Of a DNA stretch of 64,000 nt, positions 59,269 through 64,000 are shown piece by piece; position 1 is the first letter of the stretch; each line of letters opens with the position of its first letter. The notes under the pieces were generated by a model. The model was not told the origin of the DNA and searched no databases. It was given only the letters and a program-made list of their open reading frames with translations. The position numbers and the translations under genes were made by a program. The stretch is from Arthrobacter sp. (GTDB lineage Bacteria > Actinomycetota > Actinomycetes > Actinomycetales > Micrococcaceae), in the NCBI GenBank assembly GCA_023264815.1, contig JAHFUZ010000021.1, forward strand, positions 1-64,000, written 5' to 3'.

Positions 59269-60738
59269 ATGACGCCCCAAGCCGTGGACCGCGAATTTGA
59301 TGTCGTAATCATCGGCGCAGGCGCTGTGGGCGAGAATGTAGCGGGCCGGGTGGTCCGCGGCGGACTCACGGCAGCTGTTGTTGAGGCCGAGCTGGTGGGC
59401 GGTGAATGTTCCTACTGGGCGTGCATTCCGTCCAAGGCCCTGCTCCGCCCGGGCACCGCCCTCCACGGCGCGCAGACTGTGCCCGGCGCCGCCGAAGCCG
59501 TCACGCGCACCCTGGATTCCGCGGCAGTGCTCAAACGCCGCGACTACTTCACCGCCAACTGGCAGGACCACAACGGCGTGAAGTGGCTTGAAGAGACCGG
59601 GATCGAACTCATCCGCGGCCACGGCTGGCTCACCGGAACCCGCACCGTGGAAGTGGCCGGCCTGGACGGCAACACGTACCAGCTCAAAGCCCGTCACGCC
59701 GTGGTTCTGGCCACCGGCTCCACACCCAACCAGCCGCCCATCCCCGGCCTGGCCGACGTCCAGGTGTGGGGCACGCGGGAGGCCACCTCGGCCAGGGAAG
59801 TCCCGGAACGGCTGGCAGTCCTGGGCGGCGGCGTGGCCGGTACAGAACTGGCCCAGGCTTTCGCCCGCCTCGGCACGGACGTGACCCTCGTGGCACGGAG
59901 CGGACTCCTGGGCAGTTTCCCGGCGGAAGCCAGCCGGCTCGTGGCAGCCGGACTCCGGGCGGATGGGGTGACTGTCCGCGTCAACACCTCCGCGCACGGC
60001 ATCCATGAAAACGACGACGGCACGTTCACCCTGGCGCTGCACGACCGGGCTACCGGCGAAAACAGCACCGTCACGGCCGAAAAAGTCCTGGTTTCCACCG
60101 GCAGGCATCCCGCCCTCGAGGGCCTCGGGCTGGAAAGCCTGGGCTTGGAGGCCCAGGACGGGCACCCCCTCCGCCTCTCCACCGACACCACTGGCCTAGT
60201 CCACGGGACGGAAGGCGGCCAAGCCTGGCTATATGCCGCGGGGGACGCCGCCGGACGCAACTATTTCACCCACCAGGGCAAGTACGAGGCCCGCGCCACG
60301 GGGGACGCCATCGTGGCCCGCGCCAAGGGCAGCCTGGAAGGGACGCCGGAGCCCTGGAGCAGCTTGGCCCAGACGGCCAACCAGCACGCCGTCCCCAGCG
60401 TGGTATTTACCGATCCCGAACTGGCAGCCGTGGGGCGCACCGTGGAGCAGGCCAAGGTGGACGGCTACAACGCGTCCTCGGTGGAACTGCCCATCGAGGT
60501 ATCGGGCTCCGCCCTGCATTCAGAGCATTACGAGGGCTGGGCCCAGCTGGTGGTGGACGAGGACCGCAGGGTCATTCTGGGGGCAACGTTCGCCGGACCG
60601 GACGTGGCCGAACTCCTGCATGCCGCCACGATCGCCGTGGTGGGCGAAGTGCCCCTGGACCGGCTGTGGCACGCAGTGCCGTCGTTTCCGACCATCAGCG
60701 AAGTGTGGCTGCGGCTGCTGGAGAAGTACGGCCTCTAG
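59269..60738 (+). CDS. Dihydrolipoamide dehydrogenase-like flavoprotein disulfide reductase
   Basis: 489 residues. FAD motif VVIIGAGAVGENVAG (~12-26), redox disulfide GGECSYWACIPSKALLRP (C47, C52), NAD motif LAVLGGGVAGTELAQAFARLG, and the C-terminal HAVPSFPTISE His-Glu pair. The CSYWAC spacing fits the pyridine nucleotide-disulfide reductases, but the sequence differs from the classic GGTCLNVGC of Lpd, so lipoamide may not be its substrate; no partner complex genes are near. Confidence 0.88.
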   Translation: MTPQAVDREFDVVIIGAGAVGENVAGRVVRGGLTAAVVEAELVGGECSYWACIPSKALLRPGTALHGAQTVPGAAEAVTRTLDSAAVLKRRDYFTANWQDHNGVKWLEETGIELIRGHGWLTGTRTVEVAGLDGNTYQLKARHAVVLATGSTPNQPPIPGLADVQVWGTREATSAREVPERLAVLGGGVAGTELAQAFARLGTDVTLVARSGLLGSFPAEASRLVAAGLRADGVTVRVNTSAHGIHENDDGTFTLALHDRATGENSTVTAEKVLVSTGRHPALEGLGLESLGLEAQDGHPLRLSTDTTGLVHGTEGGQAWLYAAGDAAGRNYFTHQGKYEARATGDAIVARAKGSLEGTPEPWSSLAQTANQHAVPSVVFTDPELAAVGRTVEQAKVDGYNASSVELPIEVSGSALHSEHYEGWAQLVVDEDRRVILGATFAGPDVAELLHAATIAVVGEVPLDRLWHAVPSFPTISEVWLRLLEKYGL

Positions 60739-60743
60739 TCTAT

Positions 60744-60772
60744 TTGAACTGACTGGTCAGTTCAGTTAGGCT
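60744..60772 (+). promoter_or_regulatory. Promoter with embedded TetR-type operator
   Basis: TTGAAC (60744-60749), 17 bases, TAGGCT (60767-60772). A palindrome TGAACTGAC, TG, GTCAGTTCA (60745-60764) fills the -35/-10 spacer. Since the operon ends in a TetR gene, autorepression is the natural reading. Confidence 0.72.
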
Positions 60773-60804
60773 GGTGGTGACAGACAGTCGTCGAAAGGTC
60801 ACCT

Positions 60805-61530
60805 TTGCTCTCCGTTCAGCAGCTCCATGTGAAAGGCCGGCGGGACGATCTCCTTCCGCCCACCTCTCTGCGCGCCAGCCGGGGTGAGCTCCTCCTGGTG
60901 TCGGCCGACCGCCAGGACCAGCGGACCGCGCTCGCACTGGCGATCAGCGGACGGATGAAGCCCAGCAGCGGCCGGATCGAGTGGGCCGGCAACCCCGGCC
61001 TCAAACACCTCCGGCTCGCCAGCTCCCTGGTGGACTCCCCCGGCGTCAACGAACCGGAACAGCACCTGAGCGTCCGCGACCTGATGACCGAGGACCTTGC
61101 CCTGATCCCCCGGCGCTACCGCGGCGCACTCCTGAGCAAGCCCTGGCTGAAGGTCAACAGCTTCGAGGACATCGCGGATCTCTGGACCGAACAGCTGCCC
61201 GCCGGCAAACGCATTGAGCTGCTGACTGCACTGGCTCTTGCCAACCCGTACACGGATCTGCTCGTAGTGGATTCCCCGGACAGGCACAGTGCCAGCGCCG
61301 CGGCCTGGCTCCCGCGGCTCGAGGAACTGGCGTACGACGGCGGCCGGCCACTCGCCGTCGTCGCTACCGTCACTGCCCTCCCGGACTCGTGGACGGGCCC
61401 GGCGGCAGAGATCGGGAACGCGGTCCAGCGGCGGGACGATACGCCGGTAACCCCGGAAGCCCTCCCGGCCGATGCTGCGGCTGACGACGAATCAGAAGCC
61501 TTCCTACTCGAAACCGAGGTTGCCAGGTGA
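60805..61530 (+). CDS. Degenerate ABC-type ATPase paired with YhgE
   Basis: 241 residues from TTG 60805 with AAAGG upstream. The fold of an ABC ATPase is recognisable (LHVKGRRDDLLPPTSLRASRGELLLV, SSGRIEWAGNPGLK, LTALALANPYTDLLVVDSP), but Walker A, normally GxxGxGKS/T, reads SADRQDQRTAL, the signature is LPAGKRIEL, and the Walker B Glu is replaced by Ser. It should neither bind nor hydrolyse ATP normally. Its stop overlaps the YhgE start (GTGA). Probably a structural partner of the membrane protein. Confidence 0.8.
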   Translation: MLSVQQLHVKGRRDDLLPPTSLRASRGELLLVSADRQDQRTALALAISGRMKPSSGRIEWAGNPGLKHLRLASSLVDSPGVNEPEQHLSVRDLMTEDLALIPRRYRGALLSKPWLKVNSFEDIADLWTEQLPAGKRIELLTALALANPYTDLLVVDSPDRHSASAAAWLPRLEELAYDGGRPLAVVATVTALPDSWTGPAAEIGNAVQRRDDTPVTPEALPADAAADDESEAFLLETEVAR

Positions 61531-63563
61531 CCGTGCTGCGGCTGGCCCGTTCCGAACTCAAGCGCATGACCGGCGGCCTGCTGCCGAAGCTGACCATCCT
61601 GGCCCTGATCATGGTGCCGCTCCTGTACGGTGCGGTGTATCTGTACGCCAACTGGAACCCGTATGGGAACCTGAACCAGATCGACGCCGCGCTGGTGGTG
61701 GAGGACAGCGGTGCCACCTCGGGCGACGGAACCAGGCTCCAGGCCGGCAATGACGTGGCTGAGGGACTGATTGCGGGCCATGTTTTCAACTGGCAGCAGG
61801 TCTCCAGCGCTGACGAAGCCGAGGCCGGCGTCAGCAGCGGCAGGTACGCCTTTGCACTGAAGATCCCCCAGGACTTCTCCGCCAACCTGGTCTCGCCGGG
61901 CAGCTTCGACTCGGCCAGCCAGGCGATGCTTAACGTCACCACCAACGATGCCAACAACTACCTGCTGAGCACCATCGTGGACAAACTGACCACGTCCGTG
62001 CACACCACAGTGGCCAAGGAAGTGGGCGAAGAGACCGCCAACCAGCTCCTCACCGGCTTCGGCACCATCCATGCGCAGATGCTCAAGGCAGGCGATGGCG
62101 CCGGACAGCTGGCCGGCGGCGTGGCCACCCTCCGGGACGGTGCCGGCACGCTGCACGCGGGCACTACCGAACTCAGCGCCGGAGCGGCGGAACTCTACGA
62201 CGGGCAGCTGAAACTGCGGGACGGCGCCAACCAGCTGACCGACGGCGCCGGACAGCTCAGCAGCGGCCTTACCGTCCTCAAGGACAAGACCACCACCCTG
62301 CCCACCGACGCCCAGACACTGGCGAACGGGGCGGCGCAGGTGGCCGCAGGCAACGCCCAGCTCAACACCAAGGTCCACAACGTGGTCACCCAGCTCGACG
62401 CGGCGGACCAGGGGCTGCGGGCGCGGGTGATCGAATCGAATGCACGGCTCGTCGCAGCAGGAGCCATCACCCAGGCGCAGGCCGACAAAATATTGGCCGA
62501 TTTTGATTCCGTGGCAGCCTCCAGCCCGGTGGCGGCGGCGAAGTCCGCCATCCAGGCCGACGCCGCCCAGATCCAGCAGCTCTCAGACGGCGCCGGTGCG
62601 GTAAGCGTCGGCGCGGCCCAGCTCGCGGCGGGCATGCCCGCGTTGAAGGAAGCGGTGGCCCAGGCGTCGGGTGGGGCCGACAAGCTCCACACTGGTGCGG
62701 CCACGCTGGTCACGGGCCAGCAGTCTGCACTTGACGGCGCCGGCCGCCTCGCGCAGGGGGCGAAGACGGTCGACGCCGGTGCGGGGCAGCTTGAGTCGGG
62801 GGCCGGCACAGCCGCTGACGGCTCGCGCACGCTTGCTGACGAAATCAACCGGGGCGCCGGGCAGGTGCCCAACCCAAGCGACGCACAGAAAGACAGCCTC
62901 TCCCAGGTCATCGCCGATCCTGTGGCCGTCAGCAACATCTCCCAGGCCAAGGCAGACTCCTACGGCGCGGGACTGGCACCCTTCTTCCTGACCCTCGCCT
63001 TGTGGATCGGCATCTTTATGCTGATCCAGGCCATGCGGCCCATCACCCAGCGGGCTCTGGCGTCGAACGCCCCCGACTGGAAAATCGCCGTCGGCGGCTG
63101 GCTTCCGTTCCTGGCCGTTTCCGCAGTCCAGGCCACCCTCCTGACCCTCGTGGTGGACCTGTCGCTGGGACTGAACCCAGCCCATCCGGTCCTGATGTGG
63201 CTGTTCATGCTGGCGGCGGCAATGGCCTTCAGTGCCATCATCCAGGGTGTGGTGGCGCTGCTGGGATCGCCCGGCAAGCTGGTGGTGCTGATCCTGCTGG
63301 TGCTGCAGCTGGTGTCCTCCGGCGGGACTTTCCCGTGGCAGACCACGCCGCAGCCGCTGCATGTGGTGCACGAAGTCCTGCCGATGGGCTACGTGGTCAC
63401 CGGCATGCGGCACCTCATTTATGGTGCCGACCTGTCCATGATCATGCCCACGGCGCTGGGGCTGCTCGGCTACACGCTGCTGGGGACCGTCATGTCCACC
63501 CTGGCGGTCCGGAAGCACAAGTACTGGACACTGAAGACGCTTAAGCCTGAGATTGCGGTATGA
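61527..63563 (+). CDS. YhgE/Pip-family membrane protein
   Basis: 678 residues. One N-terminal helix (~20-42), a large extracytoplasmic domain with coiled-coil repeats of the form LxxGAxxLxxGxxxL (~185-470), and five to six helices at the C-terminus (~480-665). This is the YhgE/phage-infection-protein architecture, related to ABC-2 permeases and ESX-type/RND-like surface assembly factors. GTG 61527 overlaps the ATPase stop. Role unknown; export or surface assembly with the pseudo-ATPase is inference. Confidence 0.88.
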   Translation: MTVLRLARSELKRMTGGLLPKLTILALIMVPLLYGAVYLYANWNPYGNLNQIDAALVVEDSGATSGDGTRLQAGNDVAEGLIAGHVFNWQQVSSADEAEAGVSSGRYAFALKIPQDFSANLVSPGSFDSASQAMLNVTTNDANNYLLSTIVDKLTTSVHTTVAKEVGEETANQLLTGFGTIHAQMLKAGDGAGQLAGGVATLRDGAGTLHAGTTELSAGAAELYDGQLKLRDGANQLTDGAGQLSSGLTVLKDKTTTLPTDAQTLANGAAQVAAGNAQLNTKVHNVVTQLDAADQGLRARVIESNARLVAAGAITQAQADKILADFDSVAASSPVAAAKSAIQADAAQIQQLSDGAGAVSVGAAQLAAGMPALKEAVAQASGGADKLHTGAATLVTGQQSALDGAGRLAQGAKTVDAGAGQLESGAGTAADGSRTLADEINRGAGQVPNPSDAQKDSLSQVIADPVAVSNISQAKADSYGAGLAPFFLTLALWIGIFMLIQAMRPITQRALASNAPDWKIAVGGWLPFLAVSAVQATLLTLVVDLSLGLNPAHPVLMWLFMLAAAMAFSAIIQGVVALLGSPGKLVVLILLVLQLVSSGGTFPWQTTPQPLHVVHEVLPMGYVVTGMRHLIYGADLSMIMPTALGLLGYTLLGTVMSTLAVRKHKYWTLKTLKPEIAV

Positions 63564-64000
63564 GCACCGTCCTGCCCGGCCATCCTCCGGCTGAAAAGAA
63601 GCTCCGCCCCGCCCGGACCAATGCCACCAGGCAGAAACTGTTCGACGCCTCCATGGAACTGATCGGCGAGCGGGGCGCCGCCGGCGTCACGGTGGACGAA
63701 ATCGCCGCAGCAGCAGGGGTTTCCAAGGGCACTGTGTATTACAACTTCGGCAGCAAGTCCGATCTCATCGCCCAATTGCTGCGGCACGGCGTGGACATCC
63801 TGAAGGCCCGGCTGCTCAGCGCTTCCGGTGATACCGGCACTGACCCTCTGGCGGCGATGGAGGCGATGATCGGGCAGGCCATGGACTTCATGGCCGACTA
63901 CCCGTCCTTCGCCCGGCTGTGGGTCAGTGAAAACTGGCGCACGCCCAGCGTCTGGCAGGACACGTTCGCTGTGCTCAGGACCGAACTCCTCGCCGTGATC
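63560..64000 (+). CDS. TetR-family regulator, cut by the window end
   Basis: The first 147 codons are visible. ATG 63560 overlaps the YhgE stop (ATGA). The N-terminal HTH is complete: ATRQKLFDASMELIGERG, then VDEIAAAAGVSKGTVYYNF and SKSDLIAQLL; the ligand domain begins after that. Third gene of the operon and probably the repressor that binds the palindrome in the operon promoter. Confidence 0.9.
   Translation, partial: MSTVLPGHPPAEKKLRPARTNATRQKLFDASMELIGERGAAGVTVDEIAAAAGVSKGTVYYNFGSKSDLIAQLLRHGVDILKARLLSASGDTGTDPLAAMEAMIGQAMDFMADYPSFARLWVSENWRTPSVWQDTFAVLRTELLAVI

What the first reader, a model, noticed from the sequence alone, without database searches (positions are those of the whole stretch)
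60744..64000. Self-regulated operon of a pseudo-ATPase, YhgE/Pip membrane protein and TetR
The first gene keeps the ABC ATPase outline but has lost Walker A, signature and Walker B catalytic residues. It is coupled by GTGA and ATGA overlaps to a YhgE/Pip protein with a large external repeat-rich coiled-coil domain and to a TetR regulator, and a palindrome sits exactly in the promoter spacer. An ATP-independent, ligand-induced surface or export system built from a dead ATPase is not something I know to be described.
Basis: partly seen in the sequence, partly recalled or inferred. Interest (0 to 1): 0.7.

Follow-up and report, generated by a model that had tools for sequence, protein, structure and literature searches.

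The report
Dead ATPase partnered with membrane protein
A soil bacterium and its relatives keep a protein shaped like the ATP-burning motor of a transporter, but with its ATP-handling parts lost, next to a surface membrane protein and a switch gene; the loss is old and preserved, which suggests that the motor part now does a different job.

Summary
60805-61530 encodes a protein with the ABC ATPase fold (predicted model, Z 18.9 to LptB) but without P-loop Lys, LSGGQ, Walker B Glu or H-loop His. It overlaps a YhgE/Pip gene by GTGA, which overlaps a TetR gene by ATGA; TetR ends outside the window.

The losses are not recent. The 80 close Micrococcaceae sequences aligned share them. In 181 YhgE-linked domains read from Actinomycetota, the Walker B Glu occurs in 0 and the P-loop Lys in 12, none within the window's clade. 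The gene is under purifying selection.

Two further results. (1) The palindrome at 60745-60764 belongs to a class-wide operator: CTGACNNGTCAG lies near YhgE in 40 of 44 loci with this TetR, 3 of 91 without. (2) A YhgE loop (R-A-L) is present in 106 of 112 sequences with the pseudo-ATPase, 6 of 36 without; in the window's YhgE clade two separate losses of the partner coincide with loss of the motif.

Best reading: an ABC-2-like membrane protein with a docked non-catalytic subunit, self-regulated by TetR. ATP independence, ligand and transport are inferred. My searches found no description.

The parts
60744..60749 (+). -35 hexamer TTGAAC of the operon promoter
   Evidence: TTGAAC in 79 of 81 sequences, TTGTAC in 2
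60745..60764 (+). TetR operator, perfect 9+9 palindrome TGAACTGAC-TG-GTCAGTTCA
   Evidence: core ACTGACNNGTCAGT upstream in 80 of 80 close relatives; class-wide association with this TetR, 40 of 44 against 3 of 91; one exact 16-base site in the own genome
60767..60772 (+). -10 hexamer TAGGCT, 17-base spacer
   Evidence: T, A and T of TAnnnT in 81, 80 and 80 of 81; the generic promoter scan did not call it
60805..61530 (+). pseudo-ATPase: ABC nucleotide-binding-domain fold without catalytic residues, 241 aa, TTG start
60904..60927 (+). former Walker A (residues 34-41, ADRQDQRT); Lys position is R40, the last two P-loop Gly positions are Q37 and Q39
   Evidence: Q37, R40 and T41 in 80 of 80 close sequences, Q39 in 72 of 80; the first Gly (34) is kept in 67 of 80 but is Ala in the window
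61195..61212 (+). former signature motif (residues 131-136, LPAGKR)
   Evidence: no SGG, SGQ or GGQ in 162 linked sequences
61258..61275 (+). former Walker B (residues 152-157, LLVVDS): Asp kept, Glu lost
   Evidence: D156 in 80 of 80, Ser or Thr at 157 in 80 of 80
61372..61374 (+). former H-loop His position (T190)
   Evidence: no His in this column in 80 of 80 close sequences
61527..63563 (+). YhgE/Pip family membrane protein, 678 aa, starts in the GTGA overlap
   Evidence: TIGR03061 and TIGR03062 over cut-off; ABC2_membrane_3 70.2 bits over a cut-off of 31.6
62064..62861 (+). repeat and coiled-coil region (residues about 180-445), taken to be extracellular
   Evidence: 8 xxxLxxG stretches; predicted long helices, block pLDDT mostly 75-95; outside location inferred from the family topology, not tested
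63033..63065 (+). loop MRPITQRALAS (residues 503-513), proposed cytoplasmic coupling helix that docks the pseudo-ATPase
   Evidence: R-A-L type motif in 106 of 112 with NBD, 6 of 36 without; lost with the NBD in two lineages of the window's YhgE clade
63560..64000 (+). TetR-family regulator, starts in the ATGA overlap; runs past the window end (210 aa, to 64192 on the contig)
   Evidence: TetR_N 61.8 bits; full gene read

Best explanation
The three genes encode a self-regulated membrane complex. YhgE/Pip is an ABC-2-like membrane protein with a long external coiled coil. The first gene makes a protein with the ABC nucleotide-binding-domain fold that has lost ATP catalysis and very probably ATP binding, but still docks on the cytoplasmic coupling loop (RPxxxRALAS) of YhgE as a structural or regulatory subunit, for assembly, stability or conformational locking. 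TetR, the third gene, binds the palindrome over the -35 element and represses its own operon until a ligand, perhaps hydrophobic, releases it. Shown by sequence: fold (predicted model), motif loss, its antiquity, purifying selection, linkage, operator-regulator association, loop-partner association. Inferred: docking, lack of ATP use, repression, ligand. Unknown: what YhgE moves or binds, and what energy if any it uses.
For: ABC NBD fold in an AlphaFold2 model (pLDDT 76.7): LptB Z 18.9, 200 residues, rmsd 3.0; 998 of 998 aligned chains at Z>=8. P-loop Lys, Walker B Glu and H-loop His column changed in 80 of 80 close sequences; Lys and Glu absent from all 46 rows of the window's clade. dN/dS median 0.24 (336 pairs; 0.21 over 440 pairs for the core), YhgE 0.13 (310 pairs) (pairs not independent). 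NBD/YhgE 4-base overlap in 79 of 79 loci read for it, GTGA 74 and ATGA 5. Loop motif: 106 of 112 with NBD, 6 of 36 without; in the 45-row YhgE clade with the window, 42 of 42 with NBD keep it and 3 of 3 without have lost it, two separate losses. Operator with this TetR 40 of 44 against 3 of 91; 2 further sites in 934,823 other bases.
Against: No binding, ATPase or interaction data. R40, T41 and D156 are fixed in the close family, so weak or altered nucleotide binding is not excluded. The loop test is not significant once kinship is allowed for (5 starred independent pairs: about 3 the same way, 0.1 the other way, 1.9 no difference), and the motif pattern was chosen after seeing the alignment. 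Six NBD-linked YhgE lack the motif and six NBD-less have it. YhgE works in Firmicutes without such a partner (recalled; E. faecalis PIP is needed for phage infection), so the subunit cannot be essential to every YhgE function. One relative (L202) has YhgE, TetR and operator but no NBD. The complex could not be predicted with the tools.
Confidence: 0.6

Rival explanations
1. Nucleotide-sensing subunit: the protein no longer hydrolyses ATP but still binds a nucleotide or another phosphate ligand, through Arg instead of Lys in the P-loop, and gates YhgE by binding alone.
For: Arg at the Lys position is fixed in 94 of 94 Micrococcaceae sequences of the window's type and in 18 of 18 of the second tier, where the P-loop is otherwise GxGR[TS]; T41 and D156 are kept in the close family; 12 of 181 linked domains keep the Lys but lack the Glu, as expected of binding without hydrolysis.
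Against: In the window's close family the last two P-loop glycines are mostly Gln (Q37 80 of 80, Q39 72 of 80). In the sister clade the Lys position is His, Pro or others in 24 of 24 and the Walker B Asp is gone in 22 of 24, so the pocket is not under general constraint.
Confidence: 0.2
2. Half of a mixed pair: the degenerate domain pairs with a canonical ATPase encoded elsewhere, as in heterodimeric ABC exporters with one degenerate site.
For: Heterodimeric ABC exporters with a degenerate site are well documented (PMC7756269, listing and start of abstract).
Against: A three-motif pattern scan found a canonical ATPase in 2 loci of L116-L210 (L127, L177; neither beside YhgE) and in 4 of the 40 loci L214-L253 (L216, L227, L228, L243), with a fifth, L252, and a part-gene in L240 seen. 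Of these L243 lies 32 bases away but convergent, L216 629 bases upstream on the same strand, the others over 1.2 kb away; none is contiguous and in line with YhgE. The degenerate gene is the one that is linked and translationally coupled. The scan may miss odd motifs, and a partner elsewhere in the genome is not excluded.
Confidence: 0.1
3. Relic: the ATPase gene is decaying and is kept only because it lies upstream of YhgE and couples its translation.
For: Decay is graded over the class and no NBD is seen in some lineages whose YhgE kin have one (L185, L236, L237).
Against: dN/dS median 0.21-0.24; residues invariant over distant genera of the family (R50, D77, E96, W114, D156, P158, R160, 28 sequences); fold kept; loop of YhgE changed where the NBD is missing.
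Confidence: 0.07

Closest known systems
YhgE/Pip (phage infection protein) family, TIGR03061/TIGR03062, TCDB 9.B.74
   Same: The middle gene is a clear member; TCDB already relates the family to the ABC-2 superfamily (PMC3924187, one passage).
   Different: The E. faecalis and L. lactis members are known as phage-infection factors (PMC4999554, one passage); a linked pseudo-ATPase is not part of any description my searches showed.
ABC transporter nucleotide-binding domains (PF00005; nearest solved folds LptB, HrtA, EcfA)
   Same: Fold over model residues 1-207, Z about 17-19 for the 50 entries shown. 7 of 28 aligned family members match the CcmA model (best E 4.1e-07).
   Different: No Walker A Lys, signature, Walker B Glu or H-loop His; 1 of 28 aligned family members reaches PF00005 at E 0.001 and the window protein reaches none.
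ABC exporters with one degenerate site (TM287/288 and the like)
   Same: Part of the ABC motifs is lost and kept lost.
   Different: There one site stays catalytic (PMC7756269 and PMC5216877, listing and start of abstract, and recalled); here no linked copy read has the catalytic Glu (0 of 181).
EsaA of type VII secretion (TIGR03929)
   Same: N-terminal similarity to YhgE, 39.4 bits.
   Different: Far under the cut-off of 122; no type VII gene among the three genes of this operon.

Membership tests
YhgE/Pip | N-terminal and C-terminal YhgE domains over NCBIfam cut-offs | tested here: met
   167.1 and 217.9 bits against 96.15 and 102.2
YhgE/Pip | xxxLxxG heptad repeats between the two domains | tested here: met
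   TIGR03057 86.7 bits, 8 stretches
ABC ATPase (catalytic NBD) | NBD fold | tested here: met
   Foldseek and VIA-align 2, Z 18.9 to LptB, model residues 1-207; predicted model only
ABC ATPase (catalytic NBD) | Walker A GxxGxGK[ST] | tested here: not met
   AxxQxQRT; R40 in 80 of 80 close sequences
ABC ATPase (catalytic NBD) | LSGGQ signature | tested here: not met
   LPAGK; no SGG, SGQ or GGQ in 162 sequences
ABC ATPase (catalytic NBD) | Walker B catalytic Glu | tested here: not met
   Ser157; Glu in 0 of 162 and 0 of 19 more (read by eye)
ABC ATPase (catalytic NBD) | H-loop His | tested here: not met
   T190 in the window; His in this column in 0 of 162, one column further in 7 distant ones, which may be true H-loops
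ABC ATPase (catalytic NBD) | ATP binding and hydrolysis | not testable with these tools
   needs purified protein
Heterodimeric ABC exporter with one degenerate site | a linked canonical partner NBD | tested here: inconclusive
   none contiguous and in line with YhgE in the loci scanned; nearest are L216 (629 bases, same strand) and L243 (32 bases, convergent); partners elsewhere in the genome not excluded
TetR-family regulator | TetR_N helix-turn-helix | tested here: met
   61.8 bits, cut-off 24
TetR-family regulator | binds the palindrome and represses the operon | tested here: inconclusive
   operator-regulator association 40 of 44 against 3 of 91; no binding data
EsaA (type VII secretion) | TIGR03929 over cut-off | tested here: not met
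   39.4 against 122 bits

The most novel reading that the evidence does not exclude
Actinomycetota hold a class of ABC-shaped membrane machines, built on YhgE/Pip, in which both nucleotide-binding positions are filled by a pseudo-ATPase: the NBD was kept through the radiation of several actinobacterial families as a non-enzymatic docking and gating subunit, under a conserved TetR-CTGACNNGTCAG switch. In other lineages the same kind of domain is fused to MMPL transporters (proton-driven in studied cases, recalled) in front of YhgE, which would point to another energy source.
Probability: 0.4. Interest if true: 0.75.

Novelty: new variant of a known kind. Interest (0 to 1): 0.6.

Why it matters
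Some YhgE/Pip proteins are known as phage-infection factors, but what the family does for the cell is not known. A conserved dead ATPase partner, a candidate docking loop and a mapped operator make that function testable in harmless soil bacteria: find the TetR ligand, delete the operon, and ask whether an ABC-2 machine can work without ATP. It also warns that an 'ABC transporter ATP-binding protein' label on this family (one seen) is probably wrong about ATP.

Tried and rejected
Recent pseudogene: rejected by conservation in 80 of 80 close sequences and by dN/dS. Oddity of one genus: rejected. Natural NBD-YhgE fusion in L085: rejected; the long ORF comes from a reading-frame disruption near the 5' end of YhgE. 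EsaA or type VII part: under cut-off. Solved structure of YhgE by sequence: one weak match within the repeat region, taken as chance. Solved structures close to the pseudo-ATPase by sequence: nothing below E 0.037. A fold search with the YhgE model was not run, because that model is poor outside the coiled coil (pTM 0.35). Complex prediction was not possible with the tools.

Induction by amphiphiles from literature (single passages only): mixed. A YhgE/Pip gene is listed with 3.82 in a table of genes raised by cholesterol in Saccharopolyspora hirsuta, and a YhgE gene was mutated in both ginkgolic-acid-insensitive E. faecalis isolates; but a YhgE/Pip gene has -4.30 (2- against 1-butanol) in a butanol study (the strain is not clear from the passage), and one has -1.31 in M. 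ruminantium under lauric acid. So the hydrophobic ligand is a guess.

Prior description: searches show none. I saw listings with the starts of abstracts, and passages of seven papers; subscription papers are not held. The operator letters were searched for as three 12-base strings and gave four unrelated papers.

Weak spots. The generic promoter scan found nothing. In the own genome the 16-base operator pattern at up to one mismatch gives 3 sites and the reversed control pattern also gives 3, so only the exact site upstream of this operon is taken as real. The NBD tree includes the motif columns, uses a quick search without bootstrap and four outgroup rows, one of them a fragment. The loci read were chosen by me (best hits and spread over groups), not drawn at random.
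Full report
What is there. The third gene, TetR, continues outside the window and is 210 aa. Upstream lies an FAD/NAD oxidoreductase gene (59269-60738); downstream of tetR is an ORF of 204 aa and then ORFs on the other strand.

The first protein. It has no Pfam match at E<=1 and only weak, partial ABC matches in NCBIfam. An AlphaFold2 model from 52 sequences (mean pLDDT 76.7) is an ABC nucleotide-binding domain: Foldseek finds 1127 chains at E<=0.001, the 50 shown being mostly ABC ATPases, and VIA-align 2 gives Z 18.9 to LptB over 200 residues at rmsd 3.0, with 998 of 998 aligned chains at Z>=8. The nucleotide motifs are changed: P-loop AxxQxQRT for GxxGxGK[ST], LPAGK for LSGGQ, DS for DE in Walker B, Thr for the H-loop His. 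Walker B Asp156 and Thr41 remain.

Conservation near the window. 80 loci from named genomes (the best 80 of 102 relatives) all hold NBD, YhgE and TetR (80 of 80; in L085 a frame disruption merges two reading frames). 79 loci, L085 left out, were read for the overlap: NBD/YhgE overlap by 4 bases in 79 of 79 (74 GTGA, 5 ATGA), and YhgE ends in ATGA in 78 of 79 and TTGA in 1. In 80 aligned close sequences (window plus 79, L085 left out) the P-loop Lys position is Arg in 80, the Walker B Glu position Ser in 78 and Thr in 2, and Asp156 is kept in 80; the first P-loop Gly is still Gly in 67. In the family sample 71 of 149 genomes match the protein at E<1e-20; 11 more match only at E 1e-6 to 1e-3. 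Of four of these weak ones that I read, three (L113-L115) carry a canonical P-loop (L114 shows only its N-terminal part in the alignment) and one (L116) is another YhgE-linked domain. Of 14 loci from other genera of the family (L117-L130), 14 have NBD and YhgE and 13 have TetR, L127 not. Nei-Gojobori dN/dS has a median of 0.24 over 336 pairs, 0.21 over 440 pairs for residues 1-205, and 0.13 over 310 pairs for YhgE.

Wider family. A profile of 28 members matches in 105 of 248 genomes of the order at E<=1e-6 and 64 of 296 of the class at E<=1e-10; the weak ones among them may be ordinary ABC proteins. I read 40 loci chosen from these lists: 40 of 40 have YhgE beside or overlapping the NBD ORF. 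Because this set was found with a degenerate profile, I also started from YhgE (TIGR03062 at E<=1e-20: 85 of 296 genomes of the class, 20 of 149 of the phylum, 105 of 149 of the family, 139 of 248 of the order) and read 80 chosen YhgE regions. In the first 40, 28 have an NBD-like hit, though L200 and L201 are partial and L195 and L198 weak; in the second 40 I counted 19 as linked.

Motif tally. 162 linked NBDs were aligned together. Dropped before the count: the fragments L208_1, L208_2, L200 and L201, the duplicate L111, the unlinked L177_1, and L085; the four unlinked domains L112-L115 were kept apart as group 0. P-loop Lys: 7 of 162. Walker B Asp: 132 of 162. Walker B Glu: 0 of 162. SGG, SGQ or GGQ: 0 of 162. 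H-loop His in the column: 0 of 162, one column further in 7 (L120, L121, L129, L135, L138, L141, L143), which may be true H-loops. The 19 further linked NBDs (read by eye) have Lys in 5 and Glu in 0. So 12 of 181 keep the Lys and 0 of 181 the Glu. Counting only loci found through YhgE, Lys is in 12 of 45 and Glu in 0 of 45.

Tree. In a quick maximum-likelihood tree of 94 NBDs, the window's family and the sister group with His, Pro or other residues at the Lys position form one clade of 46 rows (SH-aLRT 99) with no Lys in it; the 7 Lys-bearing copies lie in the other part. The 5 Lys-bearing loci were not in that tree; their YhgE lie outside the window's YhgE clade. The motif columns were included and only four outgroup rows were used. 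The loss is thus old and shared, and the wider picture looks like graded decay: Lys with Asp or Asn in place of Glu, then Arg, then His, Pro or Gln-rich loops. The order of steps is my inference.

Regulation. The operator core ACTGACNNGTCAGT lies upstream in 80 of 80 close loci. Over 81 sequences the -35 is TTGAAC in 79 and TTGTAC in 2, and the T, A and T of the -10 box 17 bases on are kept in 81, 80 and 80; the outer palindrome bases at 60763-60764 vary. Over 135 wider YhgE loci (L116-L210, L214-L253), CTGACNNGTCAG is found between 1.8 kb upstream and 0.2 kb inside the start of YhgE in 40 of 44 that have a same-strand TetR of this kind in the locus (profile score >=100) and in 3 of 91 without; 2 more sites occur in 934,823 other bases (kinship is not corrected for). 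The 40 include L202 and L203, from genomes of another class of the phylum. In the own genome the 16-base pattern has one exact site and two with one mismatch; the reversed control pattern also gives three. A local self-regulator is the likely reading.

The membrane partner. YhgE/Pip domains and repeats are clear and the protein scores as an ABC-2-type membrane protein (PF12698 70.2 bits, PF01061 40 bits). In ABC-2 transporters the cytoplasmic loop after the second membrane helix docks the NBD (recalled). Here that loop reads MRPITQRALAS. A pattern R-[ASPLGM]-[LVIAM] in this place, chosen after looking at the alignment, is present in 106 of 112 NBD-linked YhgE and in 6 of 36 without NBD (L210 and L234 left out as cut by contig ends; of the close set only the window and 7 rows were used; L188 counts as NBD-less although its near kin L195 and L198 carry weak NBD-like domains). 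On a YhgE tree built without the loop columns (144 rows), the 45-row clade with the window (SH-aLRT 99) has 42 NBD-linked rows, all with the motif, and 3 NBD-less rows, all without, in two separate places: L236/L237 and L185. Their genomes, G262, G288 and G639, are not among the genomes with a hit. Over the whole tree only 5 well-supported independent pairs exist; the motif goes with the NBD in about 3, against it in 0.1, and does not differ in 1.9, which cannot reach significance.

Reading. The simplest account is a pseudo-NBD kept for its shape: it still docks on the YhgE loop, is made alongside it by translational coupling, and is switched with it by TetR. Whether it still senses a nucleotide is open; the fixed Arg40, Thr41 and Asp156 leave room for that. 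What YhgE does is unknown. E. faecalis PIP is needed for phage infection, which is a use by phages and not a native function. Some MMPL transporters carry an NBD-like domain at their C-terminus just before YhgE: MMPL and ABC_tran are both found in one protein in L184, L190 and L209, while L195, L198, L200 and L201 are MMPL proteins whose C-terminal NBD-like match is too weak for Pfam. L165, a long ORF, has ABC_tran but no MMPL. This hints at a proton-driven partner in those lineages.

Novelty. No family model names the first protein (no family for the window protein at E 0.001; 7 of 28 members match the CcmA model at that limit, 1 of 28 PF00005). On one of two plasmid records with a copy it is annotated as 'ABC transporter ATP-binding protein'. 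My literature searches show no description of a YhgE-linked pseudo-ATPase; they cover open-licence papers only. YhgE, dead ABC sites and TetR switches are each known; their union as a class-wide unit is a new variant.

Noticed in passing
L184:120-3206, L190:4281-7199, L209:114-3179: MMPL transporters with a C-terminal ABC_tran-like domain directly before YhgE; these three keep the P-loop Lys but not the Walker B Glu. L195, L198, L200 and L201 are MMPL proteins with only a weak NBD-like C-terminus.
   Followed up: partly
L196, L197, L205, L206, L207: Tandem pairs of YhgE genes with no NBD found; the loop lacks the RAL motif.
   Followed up: partly
59269-60738: The FAD/NAD oxidoreductase (mercuric reductase / lipoamide dehydrogenase-like) upstream is found in 79 of 80 close loci, within 400 bases of the operon in 71, though operator and promoter lie between.
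   Followed up: no
L070 and L107, about 130 bases before the NBD start: Long inverted repeats (arms of 28-29 bases) between the oxidoreductase and the operon in two Arthrobacter genomes.
   Followed up: no
L085:6001-8823: Reading-frame disruption near the 5' end of YhgE in one genome; assembly error or mutation.
   Followed up: partly
NZ_AP024649.1:879320-879940 and NZ_CP012477.1:503699-504325: Copies of the pseudo-ATPase on large Arthrobacter plasmids.
   Followed up: no
L202:3447-5489: YhgE with this TetR and operator but no NBD found, in another class: switch and YhgE can exist without the pseudo-ATPase.
   Followed up: partly
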